Shown here: piece by piece, positions 2,775 through 37,010 of the stretch
Layout of the letters: every line of letters starts with the position of its first letter
Numbering within the stretch: position 1 is the stretch's first letter
NCBI GenBank assembly: GCA_029582155.1
Contig: CM055901.1
Span: 57,162,740-57,226,739 of the forward strand
Length of the DNA stretch: 64,000 nucleotides
From: Panopea generosa
Lineage: Eukaryota > Mollusca > Bivalvia > Adapedonta > Hiatellidae
Reading direction: 5' to 3'
The notes under the pieces: generated by a model
What the model was told of the DNA's origin: nothing
Seen by the model: only the letters and a program-made list of their open reading frames with translations
Databases searched by the model: none
Program-made: the position numbers and the translations under genes

Positions 2775-2938
2775 ATGATGCCCTCTCGTCTGCCAAGTAT
2801 CTACATGGATACAGGGTGTAATGGCCTGCGCCGGTTTACAATGATTCCCTACGACAGTGTTAAACTACGGTTCCGGCAGACTCCTACCCAGGACCTGTTA
2901 TATGTATCCAGACAGTTCAAACTTCCCCTCAGGTTCCG
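2775..2938 (+). CDS. Candidate alternative first coding exon 1a of the large plus-strand gene
   Basis: The exon starts at ATG 2775 (or the adjacent ATG 2778, which has A at -3) and runs 164 bases to a GTAAGT donor at 2939. An in-frame TGA at 2757 closes the frame upstream. Its base composition is clearly richer in G+C than the surroundings, with CGG/CGC/CTG/CAG codons. It encodes 54 residues beginning MMPSRLPSIYMDTGC and including RRFTMIPYDSVKLRFRQ, with no recognised domain, signal peptide or membrane segment. It ends two bases into a codon, matching the acceptor at 36787, so splicing there would give about 336 residues. It could instead be an internal cassette exon, or belong to a different gene. 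Confidence 0.68.
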
Positions 2939-3165
2939 GTAAGTAAAGCATTACATCAGGAGAGGATTTAAAGAATGTTTTATGTGGTTTTAGAATAATA
3001 GATTTGTTAATTAAAGAAATGATTATCCAATATACATGTGTATGTATCAGTATAATGCACCCTCCTGTCTGGGAGTGGCCCAATTTTACCATGTTTTGTT
3101 GAGGGCGTGTTTTGTTGAGGGGATATGAAACACAATTCAATCCATCAAATATAAAATTATACATT
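2939..3165. other. Start of intron after exon 1a
   Basis: The sequence follows the GTAAGT donor. An imperfect duplication of a GTTTTGTTGAGG-type motif occurs around 3095-3120. Nothing else is visible. Confidence 0.4.
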
Positions 3166-3700
3166 TTAAAAGAGGTAACATTTCTGTTGAGTGAATTTTC
3201 TTTCTGTTGGGTGAACATTTCTGAATACATAAACATTTTTTTTGAGTGAACATTTTCATTGAAAGGTCATATTTCTATCAAGTGAAACTTTCTGTTCTTA
3301 ATATTTAAGTACAATAACAATTTCAGTAGAATGCATGAATATTCTATTTGAGTGGCCATGTTCTGTTTGGAAAATATTTCTGTTAAGCAGACATCATTTT
3401 TATCTGAGTGAATGATGTTTTGTGTTTGAGTGAACATTTCTATTGAGTGAACATTTCTATTGAGTGAGAATTTCATCTGAAAGAACATAATATCTATTAT
3501 GGAAAAATGTCTTTTGAGGGAAAATTGTGATTGAATTTTAGACATTTCAAGAGTGAACATTTCATTTGAGTGAACATTTGCTGTAAAACATTCTTTCTGT
3601 TGGGTCAACATATATTGTTGTGTCAACTTTTATTGCTGAGTGAACATTTATTGTTAAGTGATCATTTCGTTTAAGTGATTAAATATTTGTTGTCAAGTGA
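3166..3700. repeat. Degenerate short tandem repeat based on GAGTGAACATTTC
   Basis: The motif GAGTGAACATTTCTATT and variants recur irregularly, with the best copies at 3428-3475. Decay and irregular spacing suggest an old array. Minus-strand open frames across it are repeat artefacts. Confidence 0.7.
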
Positions 3701-3837
3701 ACATGAGCCAGATTTCCACTTTGTCACCCACATCTTGTTAGTATTTCTCAAAAATGGAAATAGCAAAATAAGTCATAACAGCAAGAAGAATTTCCATTGC
3801 TGTAATTGTATGAACAATTCATAATGATAAATGACAA

Positions 3838-4674
3838 TACCTATGTTATACCTATGTTATACCTGTGTTATATCTATGTTATACCTATGTTATACTTATG
3901 TTATACCTATGTTATACCTACATAATACTTATGTTATACCTGTTTTATACATATGTTAAACTTATGTTATACATTATGTTATACATATGTTATACTTATG
4001 TTATACCTATGTTATACCTATGTTATACCTACACAATACTTATATTATACCCATGTTATACATATATTAAACTTATGTTATACATTATGTTATACCTATG
4101 TTATACATATGTGATACTTATGTTATATCTATGTTATACCTTTGTTAAACTTATGTTATACCTTTGTTATACCTACATTATACTTATGTTATACCTATGT
4201 TATACCTATGTTATAATTATGTTGTAAATTATGTTATACCTATGTTATACATACATTATACTTATGTTATACCTGCATTATACATATGTTATACTTATGT
4301 TATACTTATGTTATACATTATGTTATACCTATGTTATACATATGTGATACTAATGTTATATGTATGTTATACCTATGTTATACTTATGTTATACCTATAA
4401 TATACCTACATTATACTTATGTTATACCTGTGTTATACTTATGTTAAACATATGTTATACTTACATTATACATTATGTTATACCTATGGTATACATATGT
4501 GATACCTATGTTATACTTATGTTATACCTATGATATACCTACATTATACTTATGTTATACCTGTGTTATACTTATGTTAAACTTATGTTATACTTACATT
4601 ATACATTATGTTATACCTATGTTATACATATGTGATACTTATGTTATACCTATGTCATACTTATGTTATAATTA
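3838..4674. repeat. 12-bp minisatellite (TATGTTATACCT-type)
   Basis: About 70 units of a 12-bp motif with variants TATGTTATACTT, TACATTATACTT and the shorter TACATTATG. Variants recur in blocks, for example around 4080-4130 and 4318-4360, which suggests segmental duplication within the array. The period allows open frames of up to about 120 codons encoding LCYTYVI-type repeats; these are not regarded as genes. Confidence 0.93.
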
Positions 4675-5037
4675 TATGATTCTCATTAAACCTTTTATGA
4701 TGTATTCCTTATTAAATGCAGTATTCAAAGCAATAAATTTATATATTTGTCACAATCTCCAGGAAAGCTATTCTAAGAAATTGTGGCAGCCAGTTAGAAA
4801 ATTGGTTAAGTGTGTATTGTCATGTTTCTGAATCATTATGTTAGATATAATACAGTTTTATATCTGGCAAGGTTCAGGATCAGGGATGTTCAGATAATCT
4901 CATCCTCCCACCAACCCTGGTTAAACCAAATTATTGCTTAATGCAAGGAATTTCCACCAAAGTTTCTTGGACCTCACTGAGATTGATGTTCCCCACCTGA
5001 CCAGAATTTCTATATTGGCTGATGATATTATAAATTA
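4675..5037. other. No feature seen
   Basis: AT-rich sequence between a minisatellite and a SINE, without recognisable features. Confidence 0.4.
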
Positions 5038-5215
5038 GTCTGAGTGATCTAAGGCACAATTTCACTTACCTCACATTGCTAAGGTCCTAGGTTCAAGTCC
5101 TGCTTGTTCCAAGAACTTTATGTGAGAAAGTTTGCTGGTTACTTGCGAAGGACGGTGGTTCTACTCAGATTCATTCTGAAGTCTTCTTCAACCAATAAAA
5201 GCTGGATATCAGATA
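5038..5215 (+). mobile_element. SINE family A copy (tRNA-headed)
   Basis: The head contains a B-box-like GGTTCAAGTCC. The body carries AACTTTATGTGAGAAAGTTT, a TTACTTGCGAAGGACGGTGG block and a terminal CAATAAAAGCTGG. The same order of blocks is seen at 7025, 30295 and 52793 on this strand, and at 38100, 42640 and 60520 on the other. Family A is my own label. Confidence 0.75.
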
Positions 5216-6016
5216 TTATTAATGTAGTAGAACTTCAAGCTACAATGTATATTTGCCAGATAATGGTTCAGTTGGAAATTGTTTAACATAAAGTTTATTG
5301 TAAGGTTGATTATTTTTTATTTAATACATTTATCAAACTACAAACTGGTTACAATTACCAACACACATATCTACAAATAATCCATTGTTTAATCAGGTGA
5401 CAATTTTACTGCTACCCAACCACACCATGTAGTTTCAATCTAAATTACGCTGTGATCATTTTTACACACTCAAAATATAATATCAGTTTATAGTTACAAA
5501 ACATACAAGTATGAGCCTTGTATGTTTGTGTTTCTACAGTCTACTCTACAAAATACACAATAATTCAGATGAATGTTATTCAATAGTTTTTAATGGGGCA
5601 TGTTCATACAATAATATTTTTACATAATTGCCATATTAGAACAATGTCAACACACTTATGTATTAGTTGAAGTGCACATCGGTTGGCTGAGAGTTGTGCT
5701 GGAACATCAAAGCCACATTGTGGTACTATTTGAAGTTCTATATTTGCTAGCTTCTAATGGTTGTCTGAAGAATTTTGACTCATGTTAAAAATGTTCTGTT
5801 TTTAATTTTTTTTAGAACATTGCAAATCTGAAAGCTGATAAATTAACAAAAAGTTTGTTCATTGACTACATATCATAGAATTTTAATTATCTTCAGAAAA
5901 ATCTCAGTTGATATTGACACTCTTAATGAATGCATTTTCTAGTGATTAAAGGGTTTCAATGCTCTCCATGATTCTGTAAAGTGTCCTTGAGATGGGCATT
6001 TAAACTTTGTGTGTTT
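5216..6016. other. No feature seen
   Basis: AT-rich sequence without recognisable repeats or coding potential. Confidence 0.4.
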
Positions 6017-6238
6017 AATACAGCTAGGGTTAATACAGCTAGGGTTGATACAGCTAGGGTTGATACAGCTAGGGTAATACAGCTTGGATTAATACAGCTA
6101 GGGTTGATACAGCTAGGGTTAATACAGCTAGGGTTAATACAGCTAGGGTTGATACAGCTAGGGTTAATACAGCTAGGGTTAATACAGCTAGGGTTGATAC
6201 AGCTAGGGTTAATACAGCTAGGGTTAATACAGATGGGT
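6017..6238. repeat. 15-bp minisatellite (AATACAGCTAGGGTT)
   Basis: About 15 nearly perfect copies alternate between TTAATACAGCTAGGG and TTGATACAGCTAGGG forms in a roughly three-unit pattern. The 15-bp period keeps both strands open, giving LIQLG-type and TLAVL-type peptides that are artefacts. Confidence 0.95.
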
Positions 6239-7024
6239 TCAAGTTGATTAAATGTTTGCTAATATATTTTCCTGGACACCAGCTTAACCTCAAATTGGCA
6301 CGCAGTACACAATAATTTTAGAGAACTAGGCAGCAAACATGTTTGCTGATTATTGAAATAAGATGTTATATGTTAAGGGAAATAATCATTGAATCACAAT
6401 GATGCATGGTACTTTAAGAGTACTTTCCCTTTTGTAATTTTTTCTGGATTAACAAAACGTGACATTGATTTATTGATACACTTCTATGAAGGTCCAACAT
6501 ATAAGATTGTATTGATAGTACAGGGGAGAGTAGCTGGTCCTGGTATCTGCCAACTATGAGATACTGGTATAGAGTTGGACAAATATCGAGGTTAAATTCT
6601 TGCATTAAATGTCCAACACATTTCATACAAAATTCCCCGTGAAGTTTTATTTATTAAATGAACTAATACTCAAGTTGAAATAGTTTATAACAGTTTGTTT
6701 GTGTTGTTATGTAATATTTTACGGTAACATATTAAGGCTGATGTTGTCAGTAGATGTTACATTATATGATTCCACAGAAGGCCAAGTGATGTAAATGGTG
6801 CATGAGGATTTTTCATGGATTGGTTAGTTCGGCCATAAAAAATTAAACTAAATCCCTGACTGATTACTAATTTTCATGCCGTCTGATCTTTTTTATTTTT
6901 GTAAAAAAATCAAATAAAAAAATCAATAAATAAATTAAAAAAAAAAATTATAATGACCTATTGTGACCCATGTGAGTCCTCCATGGTCTGCAAGTGATCT
7001 CAGAATGTATTGAAAGATAATTAA
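6239..7024. other. No feature seen apart from A-rich runs
   Basis: AT-rich sequence with poly-A/T runs around 6890-6950. Nothing else is visible. Confidence 0.4.
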
Positions 7025-7172
7025 GCCCTCGCTGCTTAGGTCAATGGGTTGAGCGAGCCCAGCTCAGTCTAAACGCTTTATGTAAATTTGTCAGTGACTT
7101 TCAGAAGGATGGGGTTTCTACTCAGGTTCATGTATATACATCTGTGGTGTCCTGTTATAAAACTGGATAGCA
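7025..7172 (+). mobile_element. SINE family A copy
   Basis: A diverged copy containing AGCCCAGCTCAGTC, CTTTATGTAAATTTGTCAG, AGAAGGATGGGGTTTCTACTC and a terminal ATAAAACTGG, in the same order as at 5038. Confidence 0.65.
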
Positions 7173-7235
7173 TGATATAACCAGGAATGTGTCAGAAATG
7201 TTGTTTAAAACTCCATTGAAAATAGTCTTAAGTGC

Positions 7236-7995
7236 TGAGTTTCTATAGAAGAAATCATTACCATTATAAGGGTAATATTTGTCCCAGAGCTTTGAACAGA
7301 TTCAAACCAAATTTGGTGTGTGACTTCACATTCAGGTAATACAGGTCAAGCTCGCATTTCGCTCTGGTCTGATGATTTTTGATGGAGTTATGCCCATTTG
7401 TGGACTTCGATGATTGACAAATGTCAAGAAATTGGTTTCCGCTCGATATTTCTTGAAGGATTGGATGGATTTGATTCATATTTGGTAGAAAGATGTATGG
7501 TGATAAACTATAGCGCAAGTTAGATTTCTGTCAAAATCCCTGCATATTAATTAGGTGTTCTGGGCTCTGATTGGCTGATAGTTTCCGACCTCTAAAGTCT
7601 TTAATTGACCAATTTTGACAACAATTTATATTTTGCTTTATATCAACGAGACCCAGGTCAAGTTAGACAATGGATGGAATTGGAGCATATTAATTAGGTG
7701 ATCTGGACTTTGATTGGCTGATAGTTTCAGACCTCAAAAATCTTTATTGATGGACTGATTTTGATGAAACTTTATATTTGACTTTATATCAACAAGACCC
7801 AGGTCAAGTTTGACAATGGATGGAATTGATGCATATTAATTAGGTGATCTGGACACTAATTGGCTGACGGTTTCTGACCTTTTGCGATAGTTAAACTTGC
7901 TGAAATTTGTGATAGCTACCATTTACAATGTAGTTTCAAAGGGGTGGCATCTGTGTCCCATGGACACATTTATAGTTTTCAAAGAGTTAAGCTTC
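7236..7995 (+). mobile_element. Dispersed repeat family P with three internal tandem units
   Basis: The segment matches 41970-42620 over most of its length in the same orientation. Shared blocks include GGATTGGATGGATTTGATTC, TTGGTAGAAAG and GCATCTGTGTCCCATGG. Inside is a tandem unit of about 157 bp, three copies here, each starting GCATATTAATTAGGTG and including TGATTGGCTGATAGTTT. No open frame of note exists. It is probably a non-autonomous dispersed element; the class is undetermined. Confidence 0.75.
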
Positions 7996-10900
7996 TAGTA
8001 CTTTTTTTATAGAAACTACTGGAATTACTAGTGGAGTATTTATTCCATGACCACCTGCTTGTGGGTACGAACTTCCATCACCAAGCCACTGCCACTACAA
8101 CAGTTTGTGTACATTTCCTTTACCCCTGCAAAATGAAGTATTGGGTAGGGTATATAAGAGTCACTGTGACAGACGGTTTAGGAGTTGGTCTGTTGGTTTT
8201 ACAGAAGTACAAATCTTGTGGTGTGAACTACTACCTTCACAGTTTTTGTTGGTTTTGGTACATGATCATATTGATTCGTAGTTGTATGTACGGCTTTGAC
8301 CTTAAGCATGAGGAGTTATTGCCCTTGGTTTTATATTTTTCTGCTGATTGTTATACTGAAACTTATGGCATAAACTTTTTCCACACTTTTTGTTGGATTT
8401 CAATGTAACTTTGCGAAGATGATAGCATGATGTGTAGTTGTGTGTGACATATTTATATCAAGGTATCAAAGTCTCTCTCAACAATTCTTTGATCAAATAC
8501 TTCCACATAGAATATCATTACGGTAGATGCAGGATGTGATATCGATACAATGACGTCAGGTTGAACAATCAAGAAGGATGCTTTACCACAGCTCAATCCA
8601 TCATTCGTAAAGGTTGCATGCGTCAAACAAGGCATAAAACAGTATTTATCATTAATAGCATTGAAAACCGGATTCTGCCAATATCAGTAATCTTCATTCA
8701 AGTAGGAGATAGCAATTTTCATATTTCCAATTTGTTGTAGCACCAGGTGCTGTTGTACACTGAGACAAACAAAATGAAAACACTCGTGATTTATAACTGC
8801 CTGATAGATAGTGAAAAACACAAACAACCTGTGTTATATAATTTACATATTGTTATTTACAAAACAATATTGCTCGTAACTTGTATTCTAGTTGTATAAA
8901 ATGAGAAAAGATAAAAGTATAAAAGAAAGTGTTAAAATTCCCTTCAGTGTGTTCTCTGTATTTAATGGTAATCAGTTTTAAAATTCTCAGTTGTTTATTG
9001 CTTACTTGAGATAAATGGCGCCCACTTTAAACTGTTTTTATTCTCATATATATGCGTTATTGAAAGTTTGTGAAGGATATATTCTCTTTGGGAGGCGATA
9101 GAAGTATTCATATAGTATAAGGTTATTTGCAGATTCAAACTGTTCCAATAAAAGAATAATCCAGGTCGACAGGACTTACATCTAAAGACTTTTTTGTCTG
9201 TCTTATTTTAATTTAATAGAAAATTTAAATATAAAGATAGATGGCTTAAACTGACGGACAGACTGACAATAGATATTGATTTCTCTTTCTGTATTACTTA
9301 TATCATCAGATTTGAAATCAATGTTTCGAGGGTTCAATGCATACTGCTGTATCTACATAGAAACAGTTAAGGAAACAGAGCAGTGTTGCAATGCACCCTC
9401 GAATATTTTTCAGTAAAAAAGATTAAAATCGATTTAACACCAAATTTTGTATTAATCCACGTTGCGTGAGTTTTCAAAAAAGAGTTTAATATTGGGTTGT
9501 TGTATAGAAGTGTTTTGATGCTCATATTTGGGTCCCTCTTTTGTAGATGGTAAATTCAAACAATATATCTTATTTATATTCTGCTTTGAAGGATTTTGTT
9601 AGCTTTATGTATGCTAAGCAAATAAATATTTGATAAACTGCAAACATCGATTTCTGTATATCATTATTTATACAATACGTAATGTACATCATGTCTGGTT
9701 TCATTTTCTCTTCTTTCAGTCATTTCTGCGTTTAATTTTCAATCAGATATAATTGTGTGATTTAATTTTCAGTGGTATTTGATAGTGTAAAATTTCGCTA
9801 ATTGTGACGTTCAAAATGATTGCAGTAATTGTGAGTTTTGTAAGAAGCTTATAGTCAGTGATTAACATCAAGATTGCAGGACAGAATAAATTGTGCTAAG
9901 TTAAAAATATAGGTTGGAACTAATAATTAACTTTGGTAATTTTAGGCAAAAGAAAGACGGCATGGGCAATTTATTCCTTGGATTGATTTTTTTGCTCGTG
10001 TTTCATGTCTTTATTTTTCAATACTGTTGGTATTGACTTCTTAATTTTTTCTGATACCAGAATATTGTTTGATCTTTTTTTTTTAAACAGGATTTATGAC
10101 ATATTAAAATAATATAGCTAAAAAAATTGGAAATTGTGAAAAAAAATGTAATGGAATGTGTTTTTAAAATAAAGATTTTTGAAAATGAAAATTTAATGAA
10201 ACTGTTTATGACTTGTTTTTAGGCTTGTTGTTACCCGTCTAATGTAGGATTCAGACCTTGTAACTCTTTGATTGACTTGGTGTTGGGTTAAGTTGAAATA
10301 AGCAGCTTAACCAGTCATCATTGATGAAAGTATTGACAGCATGGGTCAGTTATTGAGTAGATGCTTCAAAATGGCGGAAACAGACGGAAAATAAACAGAT
10401 TTGTTTGCCAGTAATTTGTGGCGGAAGGTTTTGTAGTGATGAACAAATAGTTACTCATTTGCAAATGTTAAATTTTACTTCAACTACAGTGTATATTGTT
10501 TGCCAGAGGGTTTATTCTTTGTTGGACAATTGATTGGCTGGGTATATACTTTGCGCTTGACCATTTCGGAGTAGTCTATATATATTTATTTTACTGTTAA
10601 ATTTATTTAATTTTTAAATGCATTTTTGTGTGAATTTGTCTTTACAAAGTACTCGATGTCTCTTTGCAAATAGTTCTTTAAAAGTGATTTTTACTAACAT
10701 TTATATTAGGGGAATAATATAAAACCTGCATTCTACAACAGTTAGGTTCATTTCATCAGAACATACAGGATCCTACTTTATTTCTGCTTCACAGTAATAG
10801 TACAGTTATAATTATGAAAAGATTGTTAACGCATATGCCATAACAGAATAGCGGGTATTTGTGTAGATTTATCGTTGATTCTCATTTTTACACTTGTGGT

Positions 10901-13234: not shown

Positions 13235-13542
13235 ATGAATTCTCCACTGGAAAAATGTGTTCGTGGTCAAGTGGGTATTATGGACAGAACACTGTTCACC
13301 CCGCGCACTAAAGTTCAAGAAATTTCATTCGGAGATGACAAATCTGCACGTAGACTGAGAGAATTTCCATACGGAGATGATTTCACGCCCAGGAGACATA
13401 AAGAAAACAACTCTGATGAAGATTGCACATGTACCTGTGGTTTGCCGAATAAGAAATACTGTATGCTTACGGGTCTTACGCGGAAAGAACAGGAAAACCG
13501 GAAAAAGATAGTCTGGGCCCCAATGAGCATATGTAAAGTGTT
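13235..13542 (+). CDS. Candidate alternative first coding exon 1b
   Basis: ATG 13235 has G at -3; an in-frame TGA lies upstream at 13181. The frame stays open for 308 bases to a strong GTAAGT donor at 13543, again two bases into a codon, matching the acceptor at 36787. It encodes 102 residues, the longest of the four N-termini, giving a predicted 384-residue protein. The peptide is polar and charged, with repeated F-x-P-R and FGDD/YGDD motifs (TLFTPRTKVQEISFGDD, FPYGDDFTPRRHKEN), then an acidic-cysteine patch DEDCTCTCGLP and a basic GLTRKEQENRKK. No catalogued domain is recognised. Composition is markedly less AT-rich than the flanks. Antisense frames over it are shadows. Confidence 0.75.
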
Positions 13543-15615: not shown

Positions 15616-16034
15616 TTCAGATCAGGTGGTCGTTTGTTAAAATAGTTTTGTCAGTACATATATTTGTCCATTCAATTAGAATCCTTACAACTATTTTTAT
15701 TATGACAAAATGTGTATCACTACACTGAAACATTTATTATTAGTGCTACAGGCATCTATTGGCACACAGTCCTACATGTATGTATGCACCCACATGCACA
15801 CAAGTAGCCACTTATTGTGTACACATTGAAAAATCAACTTTCCCACAGAGATAAAACATTTTGATCTGAAAGAAAGTTTTTTTTTTACAATTTATCAAAA
15901 TAATTGACAGCTTATATTTCAGTTTGGCATAAAAAGGAAAATATGTCACGAACATCAAAACTATAGCAGAAAAAAATTAAGCTATTTCTCAGCTGTATGT
16001 TTCTATCTTAACTACAATGTCTTGGATAGCAATT
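15616..16034. other. No feature seen
   Basis: AT-rich spacer between arrays without recognisable features. Confidence 0.4.
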
Positions 16035-18380
16035 CAATGTAAATATCATCTCCTTTAACATTCCCATCTCCACTACCTCAAATATCATTTCCTTCAACAT
16101 CCCTTCTCCACTACCTCAAATATCATCTCATTCAACATTCCCATCTCCACTACCTCAAATATCATCTCCTTCAACATCCCTTCTCCACTACCTCAAATAT
16201 TATCTCCTTCAACATCCCCATCTCCACTACCTCAAATATCATCTCTTTCAACATCCCAGTCTCCACTACCTCAAATATCATCTCCTTCAACATCCCCGTC
16301 TCCACTACCTCAAATATCATCTCCTTCAACATCCCAGTCTCCACTACCTCAAATATCACCTCCTTCAACATCTCCATCTCCACTACCTCAAATATAATCT
16401 CCTTCAACATCCCTTCTCCACTACCTCAAATATCATCCTCAACATCCCCATATCCACTACCTCAAATATCATCTTCAACATTCCCATCTCCACTATCTCA
16501 AATATCATCTCATTCAACATCCCCAACTCTCCTACCTCAAATATCATCTCCTTCAACATTCCCATCTCCACTACCTCAAATATCATCTTCTTTAACATCA
16601 CCATCTCCACTACCTCAAATATCACCTCCTTCAACATCTCTATCTCCACTACTTCAAATATCACCTCCTTCAACATCTCCATCTCCACTACCTCAAATAT
16701 CGTCTCTTTCAACATCCCAGTCTCCATTACCTCAAATATCATCTCCTTCAACATCCCCGTCTCCACTACCTCAAATATCATTTCCTTCAACATCCCTTCT
16801 CCACTACCTCAAATATCATCTCCTTCAACATTCCCATCTCCACTACCTCAAATATCATCTCCTTCAACATCCCTTCTCCACTACCTCAAATATTATCTCC
16901 TTCAACATCCCCATCTCCACTACCTCAAATATCATCTCCTTCAACATCCCAGTCTCCACTACCTCAAATATCATCTCCTTCAACATCCCGGTCTCCACTA
17001 CCTCAAATATCACCTCCTTCAACATCTCCATCTCCACTACTTCAAATATCATCCTCAACATCCTTTCTCCACTACCTCAAATATCATCCTCAACATCCCC
17101 ATATCCACTACCTCAAATATCATCTTCAACATTCCCATCTCCACTATCTCAAATATCATCTCATTCAACATCCCCAACTCTCCTACCTCAAATATCATCT
17201 CCTTCAACATTCCCATCTCCAGTACCTCAAATATCATCTTCTTTAACATCACCATCTCCACTACCTCAAATATCACCTCCTTCAACATCTCTATCTCCAC
17301 TACTTCAAATATCACCTCCTTCAACATCTCCATCTCCACTACCTCAAATATCATCTTATTCAACATCCCAGTCTCCACTACCTCAAATATCATCTCCTTC
17401 AACATCCCCGTCTCCACTACCTCAAATATCATTTCCTTCAACATCCCTTCTCCACTACCTCAAATATCATCTCCTTCAACATTCCCATCTCCACTACCTC
17501 AAATATCATCTCCTTCAACATCCCTTCTCCACTACCTCAAATATTATCCCCTTCAACATCCCCATCTCCACTACCTCAAATATCATCTCCTTCAACATCC
17601 CAGTCTCCACTACCTCAAATATCATGTCCTTCAACTTCCCGGTCTCCACTACCTCAAATATCACCTCCTTCAACATCTCCATCTCCACTACTTCAAATAT
17701 CATCCTCAACATCCTTTCTCCACTACCTCAAATATCATCCTCAACATCCCCATATCCACTACCTCAAATATCATCTTCAACATTCCCATCTCCACTATCT
17801 CAAATATCATCTCATTCAACATCCCCAACTCTCCTACCTCAAATATCATCTCCTTCAACATTCCCATCTCCACTACCTCAAATATCATCTTCTTTAACAT
17901 CACCATCTCCACTACCTCAAATATCACCTCTTTCAACATCTCCATCTCCACTGCTTCAAATATCACCTCCTTCAACATCTCCATCTCCACTACCTCAAAT
18001 ATCATCTTATTCAACATCCCTTCTCCACTACCTCAAATATCATCCTCAACATCCCCATATCCACTACCTCAAATATCATCTTCAACATTCCCATCTCCAC
18101 TATCTCAAATATCATCTCATTCAACATCCCCAACTCTCCTACCTCAAATATCATCTCCTTCAACATTCCCATCTCCACTACCTCAAATATCATCTTCTTT
18201 AACATCACCATCTCCACTACTTCAAATGTCATTTCAACATCCCAATCTCCACTAGCTCAAATACCATATTCTTTGACATCCCCATCTTCACTACCTCAAA
18301 TTTTATTTCTTTCAACATCCCTTTTTACAGTACCTTGAATGTCATCACCCTCAAAATCCCCATCTCCACTACCTCAAATG
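16035..18380. repeat. 39-bp minisatellite with 651-bp higher-order repeat
   Basis: The monomer combines CATCTCCACTACCTCAAATA and TCATCTCCTTCAACATCCC; about 60 copies run from about 16035 and decay after about 18240. A distinctive variant reading CCCCATATCCACTACC recurs at about 16441, 17092 and 17743 (651-bp spacing) and again at about 18048 (a truncated 305-bp step), so blocks of about 17 monomers were amplified as units. The period of 13 codons opens the minus strand for repeated 13-residue MLKEMIFEVVETG-like peptides, and the plus strand for a 192-codon Ser/Pro-rich frame. Neither looks genuine. Confidence 0.93.
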
Positions 18381-19079
18381 TCATCGTCCTAAAAATCCAT
18401 TACTTCACTTCCTTTTAAACATCTACCTCAACACCTGTCTCCTGTCCTATCGTAAAAATCATCTCCCTAACAATCATCATCTCTCCCACAACCCCTTTCT
18501 ACACTGCCTTGAATTATAATCTCCCTCCAGTATAAAAGGTTTATCTCCCTTGAACTAAAAAAACCACATTGGATTGCCTCCCTTTTATTGCATTTTACAC
18601 ACTCAATAATTTTTTTTTCAGTTTGGATTACTTCCCTTGCACTATGTTACCTTTAATATGGTCAGTTAGAATTTTTATCAGGGTGATGTTTGCTCTATCT
18701 GACAGCAATTTTAACAGTTTAATATATATGTTAATGTACCACACTGAATAATTAATGAAGGGAAAGGAAATCTCCTTGACCTTTGTTAAATGAATGCAAA
18801 ATGTTGAATAAATTGTTTGCATTAGGATAAAGATGTCATTATCTTTCAATTTGCCTTTATTCTTACGAGTTCTGTTGAACCTGGTGAAGTTGTATAGTCA
18901 TTTATATTCATGAACTATCTAGCTTTGACAACCATATAATTAATCTTGGTACCAAAATCTCGAAATTGGACATATATATACATGAGAAATATCAGTTGTA
19001 ATATACTATAGTTGTTTTTGCGTACAAAACTATGACAACTTAAATTAATTTTATATAACTTTCACATTATATATTGGCA
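18381..19079. other. Decayed edge of the array, then AT-rich sequence
   Basis: Weak ATCTCCCT-type echoes of the array continue to about 18550. Nothing else is seen. Confidence 0.4.
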
Positions 19080-26124: not shown

Positions 26125-26306
26125 ATGATCCTGTCGAGTAATGGCCGACCGAAAACATCGGCTTCATTGAGGCGTAGTAACAGTACTTTACGGTGTATCT
26201 ATGGAGCCAGGTGTCATATCACACTTCTTGGACAGGAAGAACATCTGGCATTCAGGTCAAGGTCATCATCTTCTGCAAACCTTCAGCGTAGTTACAGCTT
26301 TAACAA
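26125..26306 (+). CDS. Candidate alternative first coding exon 1c
   Basis: ATG 26125 has A at -3; an in-frame TGA lies at 26083. The frame runs 182 bases (60 codons plus two) to a GTAATT donor at 26307, weaker than the other three donors but in the same phase, matching 36787. The peptide is basic and Ser-rich: it begins MILSSNGRPKTSASLRRSNS and contains CIYGARCHITLLGQ and RSRSSSSANLQRSYSF. R-x-x-S sites (RRSNS, QRSYS) resemble basophilic kinase targets. Joined to the common exons it predicts about 342 residues. Composition is more GC-rich than the flanks. If the donor is not used, the frame ends in TAA at 26308, so this is the least certain of the four. Confidence 0.62.
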
Positions 26307-28360: not shown

Positions 28361-28760
28361 TATTGCAGTATGTTAGTTTCAAAGCAAGCTACATTTTGCG
28401 AGGCATTTTTTTGGTTATACGTAACGACCATGTTGCATTCCTTTCAGGGGTTGTGCTTGTTTCAGATAAAGCTTTTTTTGTTTTTATAAATATTATTTTT
28501 GTTATAGATAGTTAAGCCAGCTATATTTTTACCAGGCTGTTGTTTTGTTCTATGACCATGTCAACATCCCTGATAATTGTGGGTGGTGCTAGTTTCTTCC
28601 CCTTATAACCATTACTGTTGTAGGGATGATCAGAAGACGAGACTGTTTCAGCGGCAGACAAATTTGTACTTTTTGTCCAAAATCAAGGGGGAAAATCAAT
28701 GCAAAATTATTATTGATTCAAGAAATGTTCAACACTGAAACATGTTTGGAGAAATGTTGA

Positions 28761-29095: not shown

Positions 29096-29996
29096 ACAAA
29101 TGTCATATGAGGTTCAATATCCCCGTAGCAAAAGACCTTGACATGTCAATAAATCAACTAAAGCAATAAAAAGAATGACTTTATATCTAAACATAATTCT
29201 TCAAATTCTTCAACATATACTACACACACATATTGTAGTTATTCTATTCCAGCTTTAACTTTTCATTTTAATGGTTATTGAAAAGTTCAAAAACAATTTA
29301 TAATAAAGATTTTGACACAAGGATTTATCTATTCTTTTCTCTAAGTGAATAATGGTGTCATTATATCTCCGTGGAATTCCAATAAACCAGCTTTAACTTG
29401 TTAAAATTGGTGTCGTCTGTCGTTAATCATTCAGATTAAAAGTTAAAACGTTATCTTTGCAGCACAGTGTGATATGGGTTTAGAAGTTATTTTGATAGTC
29501 TATAATCATATACTTTTAAAGTTCCACTGTATATTGTTATGGATATCAGGTAAGAAACATTGATTCAGTCGCCATCTTTACTTGAGGAATGTAGTCTGGT
29601 GGGCAAGCAGTTTAATAAATGACTTAACTCAGGTTCTCTGATTTTCCCAATATCAGAGTTGCTGTCAAAAGTCTAGAATAATAATCAGTAGCAGATGCAG
29701 AGTACAGGGATGCATCCAGTATGCAAAATTCAAATGGTTACACATTCCCTCCTCCCATTCCCCATATCAAACTCAAAATCTTGATCTGTCCCTGGTTGTA
29801 CTTGTTACATAAGCAGTGTAAAAATTGTTTATTCTGAAAATTATATGGTGCTTTGAATGTAATAAAAAAACATAAACTAAAGTATTTTTGGAAACTCCCA
29901 TAATTCATGTCTGTCATTTTTTACGCTTCTCGTAATTATACAATCATGTATATATGGGACAGTCTATACAGCAAACTTAGTCAAAACTTATTCAGT
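29096..29996. other. No feature seen
   Basis: AT-rich sequence without supported coding or repeat content. Confidence 0.4.
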
Positions 29997-30130
29997 TTAC
30001 TTTGACTGGGAAACAACTTCTTACAAAGTGTCTCACTCAAGGATATCACATACAGCCGTGGCAGAGGATTGCACCCATGACCCTGCGGTCCTGAGTTCAT
30101 GCTGATGCTCTACTGCTAAACCATGCACTC
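29997..30130 (-). mobile_element. SINE family C copy, reverse orientation
   Basis: The segment shares AAACAACTTCTTACAA and, further on, a GCAGAGGATTGCACCCATGA-like block and a CTCTACTGCTAAACCATGC-like tRNA head with 61245-61440. In reverse this reads as a tRNA-like head with A and B boxes. Confidence 0.65.
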
Positions 30131-30164
30131 CATACAGTGAAAAAATCATGAAAGGGTCTTGTTG

Positions 30165-30433
30165 GATGAGGGAACCAACGGCTGAGCATCATAGTCGTGA
30201 CAAGTAGGTTGTGAGTTCAGTCCTGGTCTGAGGAGCACTTATGTCCTTTAGAATAAAGTTGCTGATTGGTCAAACATGCTGTAGGTGAATGACTAACTGC
30301 CTGTCACTGCTAAGGCTGTGGCTTCTAACCCAGCTCAGTCCAAAACTTTATGTGAAAGAGTGCCAGTTACTTGTGGAAGGACAGTAGTTCTTTATTCTGA
30401 GGTGTTGAGGACCTCCACCAATAAAACTGGATT
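30165..30433 (+). mobile_element. Two adjacent tRNA-headed repeats, the second a SINE family A copy
   Basis: At 30165-30240 there is a tRNA-like head with AGGTTGTGAGTTCAGTCC. At 30295-30433 is a family A copy with CAGCTCAGTCCAAAACTTTA, TGCCAGTTACTTGTGGAAGG and CACCAATAAAACTGG. Confidence 0.6.
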
Positions 30434-31217
30434 AGCCTATTATAGCATGACATTGTGCTGATAAGACAAAAAATAAAAAGCAAGCACAGTATCAGTACAA
30501 CTTATAATGAAGACATCGAGCATGACTTGAATAAATTGTAAACCATAATTTCACAATCCATGTAAAATGAATATGTTTAAACTAGCTACTTACAGTATAC
30601 ATGTATGTCAGTGAAGTGATTAAGTGTTATGCACAGTAAGACAAAAATCAGTATCTTCTGCTGTTTGTTGATATCTGGATACTGCGGAATACATTAATTA
30701 ACGAGAAGTCAATGTATAAAAGTCAATTAAATACCTCACACCTGATATATAATTCATTTATACACATTTCGATAAAATCTCAACCCCTATTTTATCAATT
30801 GAATCAAATAAAGCAGTATTCTATAGGTCAGTTTGAACATATTTTTTATCTATCCTGCCAAAGCTACAAATTTGCTGTGAACGCATTGGGTGCCATGAAT
30901 AATCTTTTTTTTAAAAAAAGAATGTTATTGAAATTATATTCAATTAGAAACCTGCAATGGAGTATAAGATATTGGATATTTAGATAGTAAAACAGGCGAT
31001 CTATTTTTGATTATATCTATAATATTTACATAAACAGCCCACTTGAATGGATGATAACTGATCGAGAGTTGAATATAGACAGTCGATGACGACTTATATA
31101 GTCCAGCTGCTACGTATTGTATGGACGACTTAGACACTCGCGTACAACAATGTCATGTTTGTTCACTCTGTGTACATAACAAGTAATATGTTGTAATAAC
31201 AGTTCTACACCCGAGCT
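30434..31217. promoter_or_regulatory. Upstream region of exon 1d with a possible TATA box
   Basis: The sequence is less AT-rich over the last 150 bases. A TATATA at 31095-31100 lies about 120 bases upstream of the exon 1d ATG and could be a core promoter element. This is inference from position and motif only; the rest shows nothing. Confidence 0.25.
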
Positions 31218-31381
31218 ATGGAAGAGACACGGGTATGTTTGTCATACAGTGCCAATTCTCGAAAGGGACTCATGTATTTGAGGGAAAAATCCGATGGGGC
31301 ACTCATGAACCGGGCTTCATTTTTATACCCAGAATGCCCATGGATGTATCCTGTGAGGGTGAAAACTGTTAGGAGAGTTTA
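31218..31381 (+). CDS. Candidate alternative first coding exon 1d
   Basis: ATG 31218 has a good context (G at -3, G at +4), and an in-frame TAA lies just upstream at 31197. The frame runs 164 bases to a GTAAGT donor at 31382, again leaving two bases of a codon, matching the acceptor at 36787. Unspliced, the frame would stop at TAG across the donor, as expected for an exon edge. The 54 residues begin MEETRVCLSYSANSRKGL and include SDGALMNRASFLYPECPWMY, then a basic VRVKTVRRV end; no known domain is recognised. The predicted protein is about 336 residues. It is the nearest of the four to the common exon, about 5.4 kb away. Confidence 0.7.
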
Positions 31382-31920
31382 GTAAGTGATCAGTTTGTAC
31401 AAAAGTTTTATTACGGAAATGGAATTCTGATTTTAAGTGTTGGGAACATTTAGCAGGATTAATCATTTTTAATGATTTTATATGTGAACAGTGCGGTAAC
31501 TCATTTTCTTATTTTTATATAATTTATTTTTGTATATTTGGTCACATTGTGACTGCCAGTAAGAAATGGTATGTTTTGTTCAGTTTTCATGAGTCTCATG
31601 TTTGCTGGCATATTATTCATTTTGTCTGTGTAGTGTTTGCTGTAACTGAATGTGTTGTGTCTTTGGTGTTTTGTGAGTATATTTGAAAATATGTATTTAT
31701 TGCAGTTTAGTGTCGGGATTCTTTTTTAATGATTTTTTGAGTACATATTATGTAGTTATTTTTCTATGATGATGTCTGGTTTTAATTTCATACTAAAATC
31801 ATTGAAATTTATTTATATGATTATTGTATCTTGATGTATTGTAAGTGTCGTTGACATTGTATAACAGAAATAATTAATAAGAAATAAAACTGTCGGGGTA
31901 TTTCAGCGTCTTGCATCTGT
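31382..31920. other. Intron after exon 1d, no feature seen
   Basis: T-rich AT-rich sequence without recognisable features. Confidence 0.4.
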
Positions 31921-32060
31921 AAACATGTTGGTATCTGTGTTGGTCGCAACACTTCTGTAAGATCACATGCTTCTCATCAATGGGTTTGTGGGTTTGAGCC
32001 CAGCCTATAGATCTGAATGAAATACATGGAGGAACTATTGGCAAATTGTTAGGAGAGAAT
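31921..32060 (+). mobile_element. tRNA-headed SINE-like fragment
   Basis: The segment contains TGGTCGCAACACTTCTGTAA and GGTTTGAGCCCAGCC, a B-box-like motif, followed by sequence not matched elsewhere in the window. Classification is tentative. Confidence 0.4.
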
Positions 32061-32180
32061 ACTGGATTTTTACAGAATTCTTACCTTTGTCTAGATGACA
32101 CATTGGTAACTGGCAATAAAGTAATTTATGCCACATATATATAAATGTGTAGCTGTATTGTGCTTCTGTCGTGGGTAGTA

Positions 32181-32360
32181 CAGTCAAATCTGTCTTATGC
32201 AGCCAGTCGAGGGATGGAGCAAAAGTGAACTTTTAAGACAGGTTGTTGCTTAATACAGGTTAATTTGCTCTGAAAGCATAGAAATTAGAAATAGCAAATG
32301 TGGCTGCTTAAGTCAGATGGCTGCTTAATAGAGGTGGCCTCTGTAACACAGGTTTGACTG
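32181..32360. mobile_element. Mariner-type MITE with TA target duplication
   Basis: Terminal inverted repeats begin CAGTCAAATCTGT at the left and end ACAGGTTTGACTG at the right, flanked by TA at 32179-32180 and 32361-32362. The interior repeats CTGCTTAA motifs. At 180 bp with no coding capacity it fits a Tc1/mariner-type non-autonomous element (TA target known for that superfamily). Relics are seen at 35780-36045. Confidence 0.85.
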
Positions 32361-33017
32361 TACTTACCAGTAGAGACAAAAAATGTTGTATCTCAAGACA
32401 AGAATATTTCAACATAACCTTGACATCAGATTTGCCATTTTTATAAAAGAAAACACCATTGTAATATATACTTGTATATATTCTGATACAAACTTCAAAG
32501 ATTATAAAAAAAACACACATGGAATGTCCTTATACTGGAGGTTTACAAAAACTTTTGTGTTTTTACAAAACCTTGGAATTTGGTGTCTGAATATTCGATG
32601 GCTCAAACCACGGAAAAAGTATGTCCAGGTCTCCAATCACTGAAAAAGCATTCATGTCTTGGTTTGCAAATAATCTGTAATTTTGATGACTGTGGCAACA
32701 GCAGTCGTTATCATTTCTTTGGATATTAAGTCTCTTTTGTGATTTCAGCAACATCTCTAAAAATATGCACAATATCTGTGGCACATATTCCAGTGAGGTA
32801 TACATATAAAAATTAAACATTAATGACAGTAATGTTCACTTTCATATTTTGATTAAAAAAAGTATATGCAATGATAGCATGTACCTGTATAAATTGGTGA
32901 ACATCAAGTCCATTGTTGCATCTCAGTTGTAATAATAAAGAACTTTTATTAGCAAGAGAACTCTTTTGAATAAATTCAATTTTCTATGAGGCCCTCAATT
33001 AAACATGCAACATCAGG
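32361..33017. other. No feature seen
   Basis: AT-rich sequence. The overlapping open frames here are not supported as exons. Confidence 0.4.
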
Positions 33018-33125
33018 TAAGACCCGATATTTACACTCGGTATCGGGTAGGGTCTGATATTTACACTCGGGTATCAGGTAGGGCCTGATATTTACACTGG
33101 GGTATCAGGTAGGGCCTAATATTTT
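33018..33125. repeat. 31-bp tandem repeat, about 3.5 copies
   Basis: Units read GTAGGGCCTGATATTTACAC then TGGGGTATCAG, with small changes. Confidence 0.9.
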
Positions 33126-33845
33126 ACATAGTTTGGGGATAAAGTTACAACTAAGATCAGAGAAGTCTGCATAATTATAACAATGAGGCAGCATAAAGCT
33201 GAAATGACAAAAAAAGTTATAAATGGCATATTGTAGTCATGGCAGTCGACATAGCTAATACTTGTCTGGAGGTAACTAAACACATCTGCAAATAAAATCA
33301 CATGCACTTCTAATTCATTACTTATATTCTTTGTTATTGCCCAATTGTAAGCATTTATAGAAAAATGTGGATGCACTTTCTATAGCTCTGTCTCTGATAA
33401 TTGAAGTAACTCGCTAAGTTTTTTATAATTTCAAAAGATATATCGCAGGTTTTAAGTTTCTGTTCCTTTCTATTCATTCCTCATTTCCATTGAATTATTG
33501 CGAGGCTTTCAAATAACCCCACCTATGATCACTTTCACACATGCCTTTAATACCTGACATTATAAAGGCTGTATGAAAACTGACGCCTCCTGATAATTGT
33601 CGGAGTTATTAATTTCTTCGTTCTGGATTGAAGTTGAATCGGCTTAATTTTGTATAACAGTTGTTGATCGGGTGCGTTCTTTATGTTGTCATTGATCGCC
33701 AATCAACTACAGACATGAAGATTGATTTTCACTTAACTCCTTACTTCAAACATTTACAGTGTCACTCTGTAACTTTTACTTTCTTGTTTCCCTTAGTGAA
33801 AAGTCGACCCATATAAATATTTAATAAACTAGAGCATTCCCTTTG
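33126..33845. other. No feature seen
   Basis: AT-rich intronic sequence without recognisable features. Confidence 0.4.
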
Positions 33846-33905
33846 TTATAGATATAATTAAATATGATTAGATATAATCAAATATAATTAAATATAATTA
33901 AATGA
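33846..33905. repeat. Short AT-rich tandem repeat (ATATAATTAA)
   Basis: About six imperfect 10-bp units. Confidence 0.85.
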
Positions 33906-33998
33906 ATCGGCAAATAAAAATCATTGGATTTATACATTGGAATTTTGGAATCATCACAACCATTTAAAAGTTATTGTCTTAATTTTTTAAATTCAACG

Positions 33999-34105
33999 CC
34001 CAAACCCCACCAACATGCCCCCAACCCCCACCAACATGCCCCCAACCCCCTACAATATGCCCCCAACCCTCACCAACATGTCCCCAACTCCCACCAACAT
34101 GCATG
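33999..34105. repeat. 21-bp C-rich tandem repeat (CACCAACATGCCCCCAACCC)
   Basis: Five units. The period of seven codons gives a PTNMPPT-type open frame that is not regarded as a gene. It is strongly strand-asymmetric: the plus strand is C/A-rich. Confidence 0.93.
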
Positions 34106-35085
34106 TAATTATAAAATACATCGTAAAATACATCAACATACATTTATTTTACCAGCCATATATTGATACCATTGTTTCACATTTAAAGCCTGAACTGCAC
34201 ATAAGCTACAACAATATGCCATATTTCATATTTTGCTGTAATAGTTTTAATTAATTAATTAGATATAAATATTACTTTGATACACAGTCATATTCCAAAA
34301 ATGATTGCATTTAACCTAGCTTTGGAAAAATTTGTATTTATTATTCTGTGCAGCCATGATTATGTTGGTAGTTTTTGACATCCATCTATGATTTTTTTTT
34401 AAAATAACTAAATTAATAAAAGTACTGTATTTTTACATGAACATTATGGTACGGTTCTATTTATGAAAGGAAACCATCCATCATCCTTTTGCAAGTAAAA
34501 AATATAAATTTTATCAAAAATTAAAAATAATTCTGAGCATGTTAAAGAATATGGCAAGAGTTCGGAATTTTAAGATCCCTATGTAACCAAGTTTTCCTTT
34601 CTCTCCTCCTTCTGAAGTAGCTTTGAATATCCTACTCAATATATGATATGTTCAGTATTGATCATTTTTTTATATAACATTCTAAATCCTATTATTTTGT
34701 TGGTACTGAATATTTACATTTAAAATAAAATTTTCCCTACACATTTATAAACATTAATTTGCACTCACCAAACTGAATTTAATGAACTTTGATGTTTGAA
34801 TACAGTATTTCAATAAGAAAAATATAAATGTCCTACATTTTATTCATCTAGTTTTACAATAAATATAAAATATTCCATCGGTTAAATATTTACTTTCCTT
34901 TTCAAGAAAATTAAGCTTGTTTAACTATTTGAATCTATATTTACTGTTTGGTCTTTACCGATCGTACTGGAGGTGCTCAATTTTAAGTTTATAGCTGCAA
35001 GATTAAGCCAAAAGTGTGTTTAAATCACGCTTTATAAATATTATTCTGGCACATATATGTGACTGCATGTTTAACAGAAAATTGC
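34106..35085. other. No feature seen
   Basis: AT-rich intronic sequence. Confidence 0.4.
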
Positions 35086-35530
35086 TTGGACTTTTAAAGG
35101 GACGTCCATTAATGTTGAAATTGATTTTACTCATAATTACACTTTAAAGGGAGAATTTTAGGGGGGAAAAATGTCTCAAAAAATAAAATTACTTTAAGAA
35201 TGGATAAAAAGAATCTTATCATTAATATATAAAATCAGAATGATTTGATATGTCGAATTCACCAAAACGTGACAAACTCAATATTTAAATTGAAGTGGTA
35301 TATTTGAAACAAAACCCTTTCTACAAATAGACAGCACTTAAATACTGCTAGATGACAATCAAATCTTCATTAAGACTTTTTCTAAGATGAAACAATTTTA
35401 ACTACATGTAAATCTGTATAATGGATCAAATTAAAAATGAAATGAAATCATGCGACTCATATATTAAACGTCAAAATGCTTTTAGCCAATTTTAAAATTT
35501 TTGAAAAATCCTGATATATTCCCTTTAAAA
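35086..35530 (+). mobile_element. Dispersed repeat family Q, copy 2
   Basis: The copy begins TTTAAAGGGACG, carries the same ordered blocks as 28761-29095 and ends near CCCTTTAAA (about 35520), suggesting short terminal inverted repeats. Confidence 0.65.
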
Positions 35531-35779
35531 ATTTTTTAACAGTTTTTATAAAAGAATTGGTCTCACACTAGTTTTGAAAATATGACAGAGAAAACAATCT
35601 TTCAAAATACAAATTCATTAAATGTTCTTGATACATGCATATACTGATAAAACAGATGAAATGAAAACACATTTTGCATTTTTTTTGTCATAGGTAACTA
35701 GATTTGTGATATAAATGAGGAAGTATTTTGTGTATGGAAAATATTAAAAGGTTTAGAGGAACAATTTGTCTTATGTACT

Positions 35780-36045
35780 GCAGAGTAAAAGTCAATTTGT
35801 TGCTTATCTAATACAGGTTGATTTTGTAAGATAGGATTTTAAAAATGGGACTGTTTTTATGTCAAGAAGATTCCACTGTTTAATAGGGGTGACCACTAAA
35901 CACAGGTCTGATTGTATAATATACAGTCACTGTATAAGCAGTCGCCTGTATTAACCTACATTAAACAACAACCTTATTAAAAGGCCACTTTTGCTCTTTC
36001 CCTTGACTGGCTGCTTAAGACAGGTTGAACTTTAAGTGTAATTTC
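35780..36045. mobile_element. Two decayed mariner-MITE relics, head to tail
   Basis: The first relic ends CACAGGTCTGATTGTAT (about 35905). The second begins ATACAGTCACTGTATAAGCA (about 35922) in the opposite sense and runs to GCTTAAGACAGGTTGAAC. Both resemble the intact element at 32181. Confidence 0.65.
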
Positions 36046-36073
36046 TAAGCCTGCGATTTAAAATGTTGAGTTT

Positions 36074-36107
36074 GGGGTTCGGGGTGGGTGGGTGGGTGTG
36101 GGGGGGA
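36074..36107 (+). repeat. G-rich tract with quadruplex-forming pattern
   Basis: At least six runs of three or more G separated by one to three bases. It lies in the intron about 680 bases before the common exon at 36787. Confidence 0.8.
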
Positions 36108-36786
36108 CTTCATTTTAGATAGGTCACATTTACTGTGTTCATGATAGATTATTTTACTTGCTTGTCCATTACAATCATTTTATTGCTGTTTAATATCTTG
36201 ATCATCTCAATCTGCGCCATCTGATAGGATCATTCGTGCAGCAGACTGTTCTTGTAACATAATGGCTTTGGTGCTTATAAAATATGTATGTGAGAAACAT
36301 CAATTGACTCATGATCTAATTTATTTTCAGGTGCGGAACTCACAATATTTAGTTAATGGAAGAAAAAATAGTTTTCTTTATTTTTTATAGAACTTTTTAC
36401 GTTCTTCCATTTTAGAAGCAGGACTGGAAATTAATTTAAAAAGATAAAGTTAATTTTTAAGTTTATGTCTTTTAAAAAAAAAATGTTTAGTTCTTGGTTG
36501 CAAAACTAAGCTTTAAATTTGTTAAAAAAATCCTCCATGTCAGATCTTTATAATTGTATATGATTTATAAGCACAATGTATAGATAGTGTTATATGTGTT
36601 TAAATAACAATAAAATATGTTTTAACTAAACTATTTGTATGCCAAGAAACAAACTTAAAACAGGGTACCAGTGACATTACACATACACTACACAAGTGAT
36701 GAAGCAGACGAGATACTTTTACATGATAGGTTCTGTTTTCTCATAATAATGCCCAATGTAAAAATTCAACTTGTATTTCCTTGCAG
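36108..36786. other. 3' end of the long intron before common exon 2
   Basis: AT-rich sequence ending in the TTTCCTTGCAG acceptor (AG at 36785-36786). No other feature is seen. Confidence 0.5.
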
Positions 36787-37010
36787 TTCTTCCAGTACGC
36801 CGACGGTTCCCTACTCGACGGCGGACATTTTATATGGGAGTGAGGTAAACAACAGGAACCAGCTAGATGATGCACGGCAAAACAGTTATTTAGACCTGGA
36901 CAAGAATAGAGACTTGCAGCGCCAGAAGTCGAAGGAATTGGAGCAGCATCCAAACAACCGAAGACCAAGCAGTAAATCTGGATCACGCAAGTCTCTCACT
37001 ATAGAAGCAG
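36787..37010 (+). CDS. Common exon 2 of the uncharacterised plus-strand gene
   Basis: The acceptor TTTCCTTGCAG precedes 36787 and a GTGAGA donor follows at 37011. The exon takes two bases from the preceding exon, so all four candidate first exons fit, and it leaves one base. It is 224 bases and clearly GC-enriched against its intron. It encodes about 75 residues: SSSTPTVPYSTADILYGSEV, then NNRNQLDDARQNSYLDLD, then RDLQRQKSKELEQHPNNRR, then PSSKSGSRKSLTIEA. It is highly polar with a probable short helix (DKNRDLQRQKSKELEQ) and a Ser/Arg/Lys patch that could be phosphorylated. No known domain is recognised. Antisense frames at 36741-37074 are shadows. Confidence 0.86.

What the first reader, a model, noticed from the sequence alone, without database searches (positions are those of the whole stretch)
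2775..36790. Four phase-matched candidate first exons converge on one common exon
Seen: exons starting at ATG 2775, 13235, 26125 and 31218. Each has an in-frame stop upstream, elevated GC, and a GT donor (GTAAGT in three, GTAATT in one) leaving exactly two bases of a codon. The acceptor at 36787 needs exactly two. Lengths are 164, 308, 182 and 164 bases. Inference: one gene with at least four promoters, each giving a different N-terminus (54, 102, 60, 54 residues, unrelated in sequence) on one 282-residue body. Each phase match has a one-in-three chance, so phase alone is about 1 in 80, but combined with length, composition and donors it is strong. This layout suggests N-terminus-dependent targeting or interaction.
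Basis: partly seen in the sequence, partly recalled or inferred. Interest (0 to 1): 0.82.

Follow-up and report, generated by a model that had tools for sequence, protein, structure and literature searches.

The report
One gene with many alternative starts
A gene of unknown function appears to have at least four, and probably more, separate starting exons that all join the same downstream exons, so that one protein body can carry different front ends; this layout is known from other genes.

Summary
Confirmed. Four ATG-started open stretches (2775-2938, 13235-13542, 26125-26306, 31218-31381) end at GTAAGT (three) or GTAATT (one), all leave two bases and fit the acceptor at 36787. The 282-residue body is recovered exactly: exons 36787-37010, 43081-43227, 49139-49468, 50897-51042. 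3 of 9 GTAAGT on the + strand end such ORFs, 0 of 13 on the other strand; shuffle mean 0.037. GC is raised between ATG and donor and low on both sides. The body ends in Pfam DUF5537, found once in this 1.47 Gb genome. Three more ATG exons leaving two bases lie 40, 68 and 93 kb upstream of the window, with a weaker one at 29 kb. Several N-termini share a V-[KR]-[VL]-[KR] motif, post hoc. Weak points: no RNA, no relatives to compare, exon 26125 not significant by donor and register alone, promoters not shown, some upstream ATG exons out of register. Best reading: a multiple-variable-first-exon gene, a new member of a known kind, in a family that no paper of the searched library names.

The parts
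2775..2938 (+). candidate first exon 1A (54 codons + 2 nt), donor CCG|GTAAGT
   Evidence: GC contrast reached by 0 of 101 null ORFs; codon score reached by 11 of 90 null ORFs (weak)
13235..13542 (+). candidate first exon 1B (102 codons + 2 nt), donor GTT|GTAAGT
   Evidence: codon score 0 of 90 null; GC contrast 5 of 101 null; one match in the genome, itself
26125..26306 (+). candidate first exon 1C (60 codons + 2 nt), donor CAA|GTAATT, the only one without GTAAGT
   Evidence: codon score 2 of 90 null; GC contrast 3 of 101 null; donor test alone not significant
31218..31381 (+). candidate first exon 1D (54 codons + 2 nt), donor TTA|GTAAGT
   Evidence: codon score 4 of 90 null; GC contrast 4 of 101 null; acceptor-like site 31333 (score 3.6) inside; two other frames open over most of it
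36787..37010 (+). common exon e2 (supplies 1 nt to the split codon, leaves 1)
   Evidence: acceptor 4.0, donor 7.7, top + strand exon of the window; DNA and protein searches of the genome find only this place for it
43081..43227 (+). common exon e3, 147 nt, phase 1 at both ends (could be skipped without a frame shift)
49139..49468 (+). common exon e4, 330 nt, phase 1 at both ends, Gln-rich
   Evidence: codon score negative, as expected of a Gln/Asn/Ser-rich stretch
50897..51042 (+). terminal exon e5 with stop TGA 51040-51042; codes the DUF5537 C-terminus
   Evidence: PF17690 34.3 bits, cut-off 28.4
62333..62737 (-). coding part of the neighbouring Tim29 gene; served as a positive control of the exon scan, not part of this gene
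   Evidence: PF10171 E 2.6e-48 on 62187-62798; exon span as

Best explanation
A DUF5537 gene uses several alternative first exons, each presumably behind its own promoter. Transcription from any one of them gives a coding first exon whose last two bases join the first base of exon 36787; exons e2-e5 then give a common 282-residue, low-complexity, basic body ending in the DUF5537 segment. The N-terminus is chosen by promoter use, so expression site and N-terminal partner are set together. Inside the window there are four such exons (54-102 codons); upstream, at 57070038-57070567, 57094454-57094827 and 57122208-57122362 of contig C8, lie three more that leave two bases (176, 124 and 51 codons), and a weaker one at 57133603-57133736. 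Shown: sequence, register, composition, family of the C-terminus. Inferred: splicing, promoters, N-terminus-dependent interaction.
For: Register and donors beyond shuffles and beyond the other strand. Out of sample: in the 100 kb upstream, counting each ORF of at least 150 nt once at its last GTRAGT, 3 of 4 on the + strand leave two and the - strand has none; shuffle means 0.65 and 0.83, 5 of 150 and 9 of 150 shuffles reach three. GC contrast: the four and the three upstream exons are each reached by 0 to 5 of 101 null ORFs. Codon score: 0, 2, 4 and 11 of 90 null ORFs reach 1B, 1C, 1D and 1A; 0, 6 and 0 reach the upstream 57070038, 57094454 and 57122208. In each exon only the predicted frame of six is free of stops over the whole length. 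Of 202 acceptor-like sites downstream of 2939, those that open into at least 120 nt with a donor in the needed register are 36787, its shadow 36796, and a weak site at 31250 inside 1D (score 1.6, donor leaving 0). None of the four nor e2-e4 overlaps an interspersed repeat of the window (e5 and the upstream exons were not tested). Spliced isoforms read through to one stop and the end of the body matches PF17690 over its cut-off, found once in the genome.
Against: No RNA evidence. Three of four donors score poorly on the full donor matrix (1.54, 0.24, -0.08 against 7.72), though that matrix is recalled and human-like. 1C alone is not significant on donor and register. Codon scores are weak: 1A is reached by 11 of 90 null ORFs, and in 1A and 1C other frames (with stops) score higher than the predicted one; in 1D two other frames are open over nearly the whole exon (31187-31369 + and 31208-31378 -). 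Upstream there is also a long ORF leaving 0 (57076634-57077071), and in the next 60 kb three ORFs leave 0, 1 and 1; raw counts of GTRAGT ends in the 100 kb are 2, 1 and 3 for leaving 0, 1 and 2. Short candidates for extra internal exons in the same register exist (30138-30203; 57099232 and 57122201 of C8). No promoter signature: CpG ratio upstream of the four ATGs ranks 50 to 736 of 2000 and TATA-like words are inconsistent. No conservation test was possible.
Confidence: 0.8

Rival explanations
1. Only some of the four are real first exons (most likely 1A, 1B and 1D); 1C is a chance ORF with a poor donor.
For: 1C donor GTAATT, score 0.24; about 0.15 such ORFs expected by chance; another frame scores higher on codons.
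Against: 1C is reached by 2 of 90 null ORFs on codon score and 3 of 101 on GC contrast, and GC is 0.45 inside against 0.29 and 0.31 outside.
Confidence: 0.25
2. Some of the exons are internal cassette exons entered from further upstream exons, not first exons.
For: Acceptor-like sites of score 2.0 at 26236 and 3.6 at 31333 lie inside 1C and 1D; upstream, a segment from 57122201 could be an internal exon that takes 1 and leaves 2, and a phase-compatible chain 57019826 - 57037255 - 57070152 - e2 exists.
Against: Between the in-frame stop and the ATG the best acceptor score is -6.0, -1.4, -9.2 and -1.5 for 1A-1D, against 4.0, 4.0, 2.0 and 1.3 for e2-e5; entering 1C or 1D at the inside sites would leave only 71 or 49 nt.
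Confidence: 0.12
3. The upstream exons, or some of the four, belong to another gene of the same strand and the shared register is coincidence.
For: Other ATG ORFs upstream leave 0 or 1; short segments that could take them in register lie at 30138-30203 and at 57099232 and 57122201 of C8.
Against: These are short or have weak acceptors (0.5 to 1.6); the only strong exon in that register is 36787.
Confidence: 0.1
4. Chance: ORFs, donors and register fell together by luck and selection by the reader.
Against: A full scan of 1-36786 finds at GTAAGT these three ATG ORFs of at least 160 nt and no other; 0 of 300 shuffles reach three.
Confidence: 0.02

Closest known systems
Plectin gene (PLEC)
   Same: A dozen alternative first exons, short different N-termini on one body, splicing into a common exon 2 (PMC8468861, passages seen).
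   Different: Plectin is a giant cytolinker; here the body is a 282-residue DUF5537 protein, and targeting has not been tested.
UGT1, GCNT2 and clustered protocadherin genes (multiple variable first exons)
   Same: Variable first exons, in UGT1 each preceded by a promoter, joined to common exons (PMC1885805 and PMC3325998, starts of abstracts seen in the listing).
   Different: Those are tandem arrays; here the first exons do not align to each other apart from a short motif in some.
Chelicerate sDscam 5' cassettes
   Same: An invertebrate case of 5' variable cassettes with alternating promoters (PMC4835542, abstract and section list seen).
   Different: Tandem repeats of Ig exons of a Dscam gene; not here.
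Pfam PF17690 DUF5537
   Same: The C-terminal part of the body matches over the curated cut-off.
   Different: Only part of the model (67-155 of 160 at most; 115-155 on genomic DNA) is matched; no N-terminus scanned matches a Pfam family over its cut-off.

Membership tests
Multiple-variable-first-exon gene | Several ATG-bearing exons with compatible donor phase upstream of one common acceptor | tested here: met
Multiple-variable-first-exon gene | A transcription start just upstream of each first exon | not testable with these tools
   no RNA data; composition gives no promoter signal
Multiple-variable-first-exon gene | Splice junctions from each first exon to the common exon | not testable with these tools
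   needs cDNA
Multiple-variable-first-exon gene | First exons are not internal exons | tested here: inconclusive
   no good acceptor before the ATGs, but sites inside 1C and 1D
Tandem-array type (UGT1, clustered protocadherin) | First exons are homologous duplicates | tested here: not met
   blastn and blastp among the four empty; nine peptides, best E 0.12; by another aligner one upstream pair, 57094454 with 57070038, exceeds all of 400 shuffles, 1 of 28 pairs
Pfam PF17690 DUF5537 | Score over the curated cut-off of 28.4 bits | tested here: met
   34.3 bits for the body without its first junction residue; 30.2 bits on genomic DNA
Pfam PF17690 DUF5537 | Match over the whole length of the model | tested here: not met
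   positions 67-155 of 160 only

The most novel reading that the evidence does not exclude
A single-copy DUF5537 gene carries eight or more first exons of one register spread over about 129 kb (from 57070038 to the common exon at 57199526 of C8), not tandem duplicates, yet many carry the same V-[KR]-[VL]-[KR] motif, so the N-termini would be independently shaped modules that deliver one docking motif and one common DUF5537 tail in different expression contexts.
Probability: 0.25. Interest if true: 0.6.

Novelty: new member of a known kind. Interest (0 to 1): 0.5.

Why it matters
It gives a gene model with exact junctions for a family of unknown function (no paper in the searched library names DUF5537 or PF17690). 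Ordinary annotation could well miss or split such a gene, since the candidate first exons lie 5 to 129 kb from the body. If the choice of N-terminus proves conserved, it offers a handle on what the DUF5537 tail does.

Tried and rejected
Ending the gene at TAG 49495-49497 (242-residue body): rejected after exon e5 was found and matched DUF5537. Identifying the gene from the body without e5 by Pfam, PDB, IMG/VR and GTDB contigs, or exon 1B by PDB: nothing significant; upstream exons by Pfam and PDB: nothing over a cut-off, best PDB E 0.45. A generic codon model was weak for 1A, 1C and 1D; replaced by one with synonymous codon use from 1190 codons of neighbouring genes. Relatedness of 1A and the 57133603 exon (both contain SVKLR): 56 of 400 shuffles reach the alignment score, not significant; the pair 57094454 and 57070038 scored above all 400 shuffles but was one of 28 pairs, and blastp did not list it. 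Motif: a reduced four-letter word is shared by 5 of 8 peptides, and the best word reaches 5 in 4 of 1000 shuffles; without the 57133603 exon it is 4 of 7, reached by 49 of 1000, so not firm. In null ORFs the motif is in 4 of 283. Mitochondrial presequence for 1C: no acidic residue before position 38 but low hydrophobic moment (0.37), left open. Rfam (gathering scores only) and tRNA scans of the window: nothing. The promoter scan is for bacterial promoters and tells nothing here. Pearl-oyster long-read paper (PMC7359550): passages seen only; the terms 'alternative first' and 'first exon' do not occur in its main text. Structure prediction was not run.
Full report
What was checked. The four stretches are present exactly as described: 2775-2938, 13235-13542, 26125-26306 and 31218-31381, open from ATG to donor, each leaving two bases, with in-frame stops 15, 51, 39 and 18 nt before the ATG. 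The common acceptor is TTGCAG|T at 36787, and its first base completes the codon. Junction codons read R, F, N and Y.

The body. Exons 36787-37010, 43081-43227 and 49139-49468 are joined in phase 1. I first ended the protein at a TAG (49495-49497) in intron 4, which gave 242 residues. With codon use learnt from neighbouring genes, an exon at 50897 appeared whose open stretch runs to a TGA at 51040-51042. The last part matches Pfam PF17690 (DUF5537) at 34.3 bits against a cut-off of 28.4, and at 29.3 to 32.9 bits in hand-joined forms without e4 or without e3 and e4; the family occurs once in the 1.474 Gb genome, at this exon. Part of the body (e2-e3) finds only itself. No paper in the library names DUF5537 or PF17690 (word search of the full text of 5.39 million PMC papers).

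More than chance? On the + strand of 1-36786 there are 9 GTAAGT; 3 of 9 end ATG ORFs of at least 160 nt and all three leave two bases. On the - strand it is 0 of 13. In 300 dinucleotide shuffles within 2-kb blocks the mean was 0.037 and the maximum 1. For GTAA[GT]T it is 4 of 27 against 0 of 27, shuffle mean 0.18, maximum 2; as Poisson tails 8e-6 and 4e-5, and 0.14 for GTAATT alone. At a minimum of 150 nt and with GTRAGT the - strand has one ORF, leaving 0. So 1A, 1B and 1D are strong as a set and 1C is carried by other evidence.

Composition and coding. Against 101 null ATG..GT ORFs of both strands, the GC contrast with the flanks is reached by 0 (1A), 5 (1B), 3 (1C) and 4 (1D) of 101; flanks are at 0.26-0.33 GC. 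Codon scores are reached by 11, 0, 2 and 4 of 90 null ORFs. In each exon only the predicted frame of six is free of stops over the whole length, but in 1D two other frames are open over nearly all of it, and in 1A and 1C frames with stops score higher than the predicted one. None of the four, nor e2-e4, overlaps an interspersed repeat of the window.

Is e2 the partner, and are these first exons? Of 202 acceptor-like sites after 2939, the ones that open into at least 120 nt with a donor in the needed register are 36787, its shadow 36796, and a weak site at 31250 inside 1D whose donor leaves 0. Shorter candidates in that register are 30138-30203 (takes 1, leaves 2) and, upstream, 57099232 and 57122201 of C8; these could be optional internal exons. 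Before the ATGs no acceptor scores above -1.4; inside the exons 1C and 1D have sites of 2.0 and 3.6. Thus cassette use is unlikely for 1A and 1B and not excluded for 1C and 1D. Donor scores are 7.72, 1.54, 0.24 and -0.08; the matrix is recalled.

Outside the window. Window position p is base 57162739+p of contig C8. I fetched 160 kb upstream and 100 kb downstream. Upstream, three more ATG ORFs leave two bases: 57070038-57070567 (176 codons, GTAAGT), 57094454-57094827 (124 codons, GTAAGT) and 57122208-57122362 (51 codons, GTGAGT). In that 100 kb, counting each ORF of at least 150 nt once at its last GTRAGT, there are 4 on the + strand (3 leave two, 1 leaves none) and 0 on the - strand; shuffle means for 'leaves two' are 0.65 and 0.83, and 5 and 9 of 150 shuffles reach three, so this is supportive, not decisive. 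Counting every GTRAGT end, the numbers leaving 0, 1 and 2 are 2, 1 and 3. In the next 60 kb upstream 3 ORFs leave 0, 1 and 1. GC contrast of the three is reached by 0, 2 and 1 of 101, codon score by 0, 6 and 0 of 90. The ORF that leaves none (57076634-57077071) is ordinary in GC contrast (19 of 101) though it looks coding by codons (2 of 90). The null ORF with the highest codon score and GC contrast, 57133603, has as its best donor GTATGT leaving two, a weaker eighth candidate chosen after the fact. The 57070038 exon and 1B each have one match in the genome; 1A, 1C and 1D could not be searched.

Neighbours. Tim29 lies on the - strand at the right end of the window; an exon that I take from recall to be YIPF1-like is on the + strand near 72.7 kb, and tyrosine-phosphatase-like exons (recalled motif) are on the - strand at 106-127 kb (Pfam gave nothing for the 72.7 kb piece). 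They suggest that the gene ends before them.

The N-termini. The window's four are basic (net +5 to +7), have no hydrophobic stretch (best 19-residue mean 0.34 at most), and 1B has six cysteines (peptides with junction residue). So none of the four looks like a signal peptide or membrane anchor. They do not align with each other, but V-[KR]-[VIL]-[KR] occurs in 5 of 8 candidates (2 of the window's four) against 4 of 283 null ORFs; corrected for the choice of word, 4 of 1000 shuffles reach this for eight peptides and 49 of 1000 for seven. This is a lead only.

How it most likely works. Alternative promoters select the first exon; splicing to 36787 adds the common body; e3 and e4, both symmetrical, may be optional. 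The N-terminus then sets localisation or partner, and the DUF5537 tail does the common work. Register, composition and family are shown; the rest is inferred. Closest known layouts are plectin, UGT1 and protocadherin clusters and chelicerate sDscam; unlike the tandem arrays, these exons are not evident duplicates of each other.

Limits. No transcripts and no related eukaryote genomes were on hand. Exon scans use recalled splice tables and small training sets.

Noticed in passing
16041-18390: Minisatellite of a 39-bp unit, about 61 copies, almost free of G on the + strand (GC skew -0.95 at 16001-18000), which makes long mechanical ORFs in several frames.
   Followed up: no
38244-41450 and 46872-49104: Large minisatellites of 43, 30 and 46 bp in introns 2 and 3 of the gene, the last ending about 35 nt before exon e4.
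   Followed up: no
62187-62798: Tim29 gene (PF10171) on the - strand; the open stretch covers model positions 15-168 of 169.
   Followed up: partly
C8:57076634-57077071 (window -86105 to -85668): ATG ORF of 146 codons with an internal repeat (YKLPKLxVVDITE), donor GTAAGT leaving none; not in the register of the others.
   Followed up: partly
C8:57019780-57020056 (window -142959 to -142683): Coding-like ATG exon leaving one base; with segments near 57037255 and 57070152 it forms a phase-compatible chain into e2, perhaps a longer isoform or another gene.
   Followed up: partly
C8:57104627-57104779 (window -58112 to -57960): ATG ORF with raised GC and the VKLR motif but no good donor leaving two.
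   Followed up: no
downstream loci L002-L011, window coordinates 155951-157784: Long cysteine-rich, EGF-like (by eye) ORF on the - strand, on the far side of the tyrosine-phosphatase-like exons.
   Followed up: no
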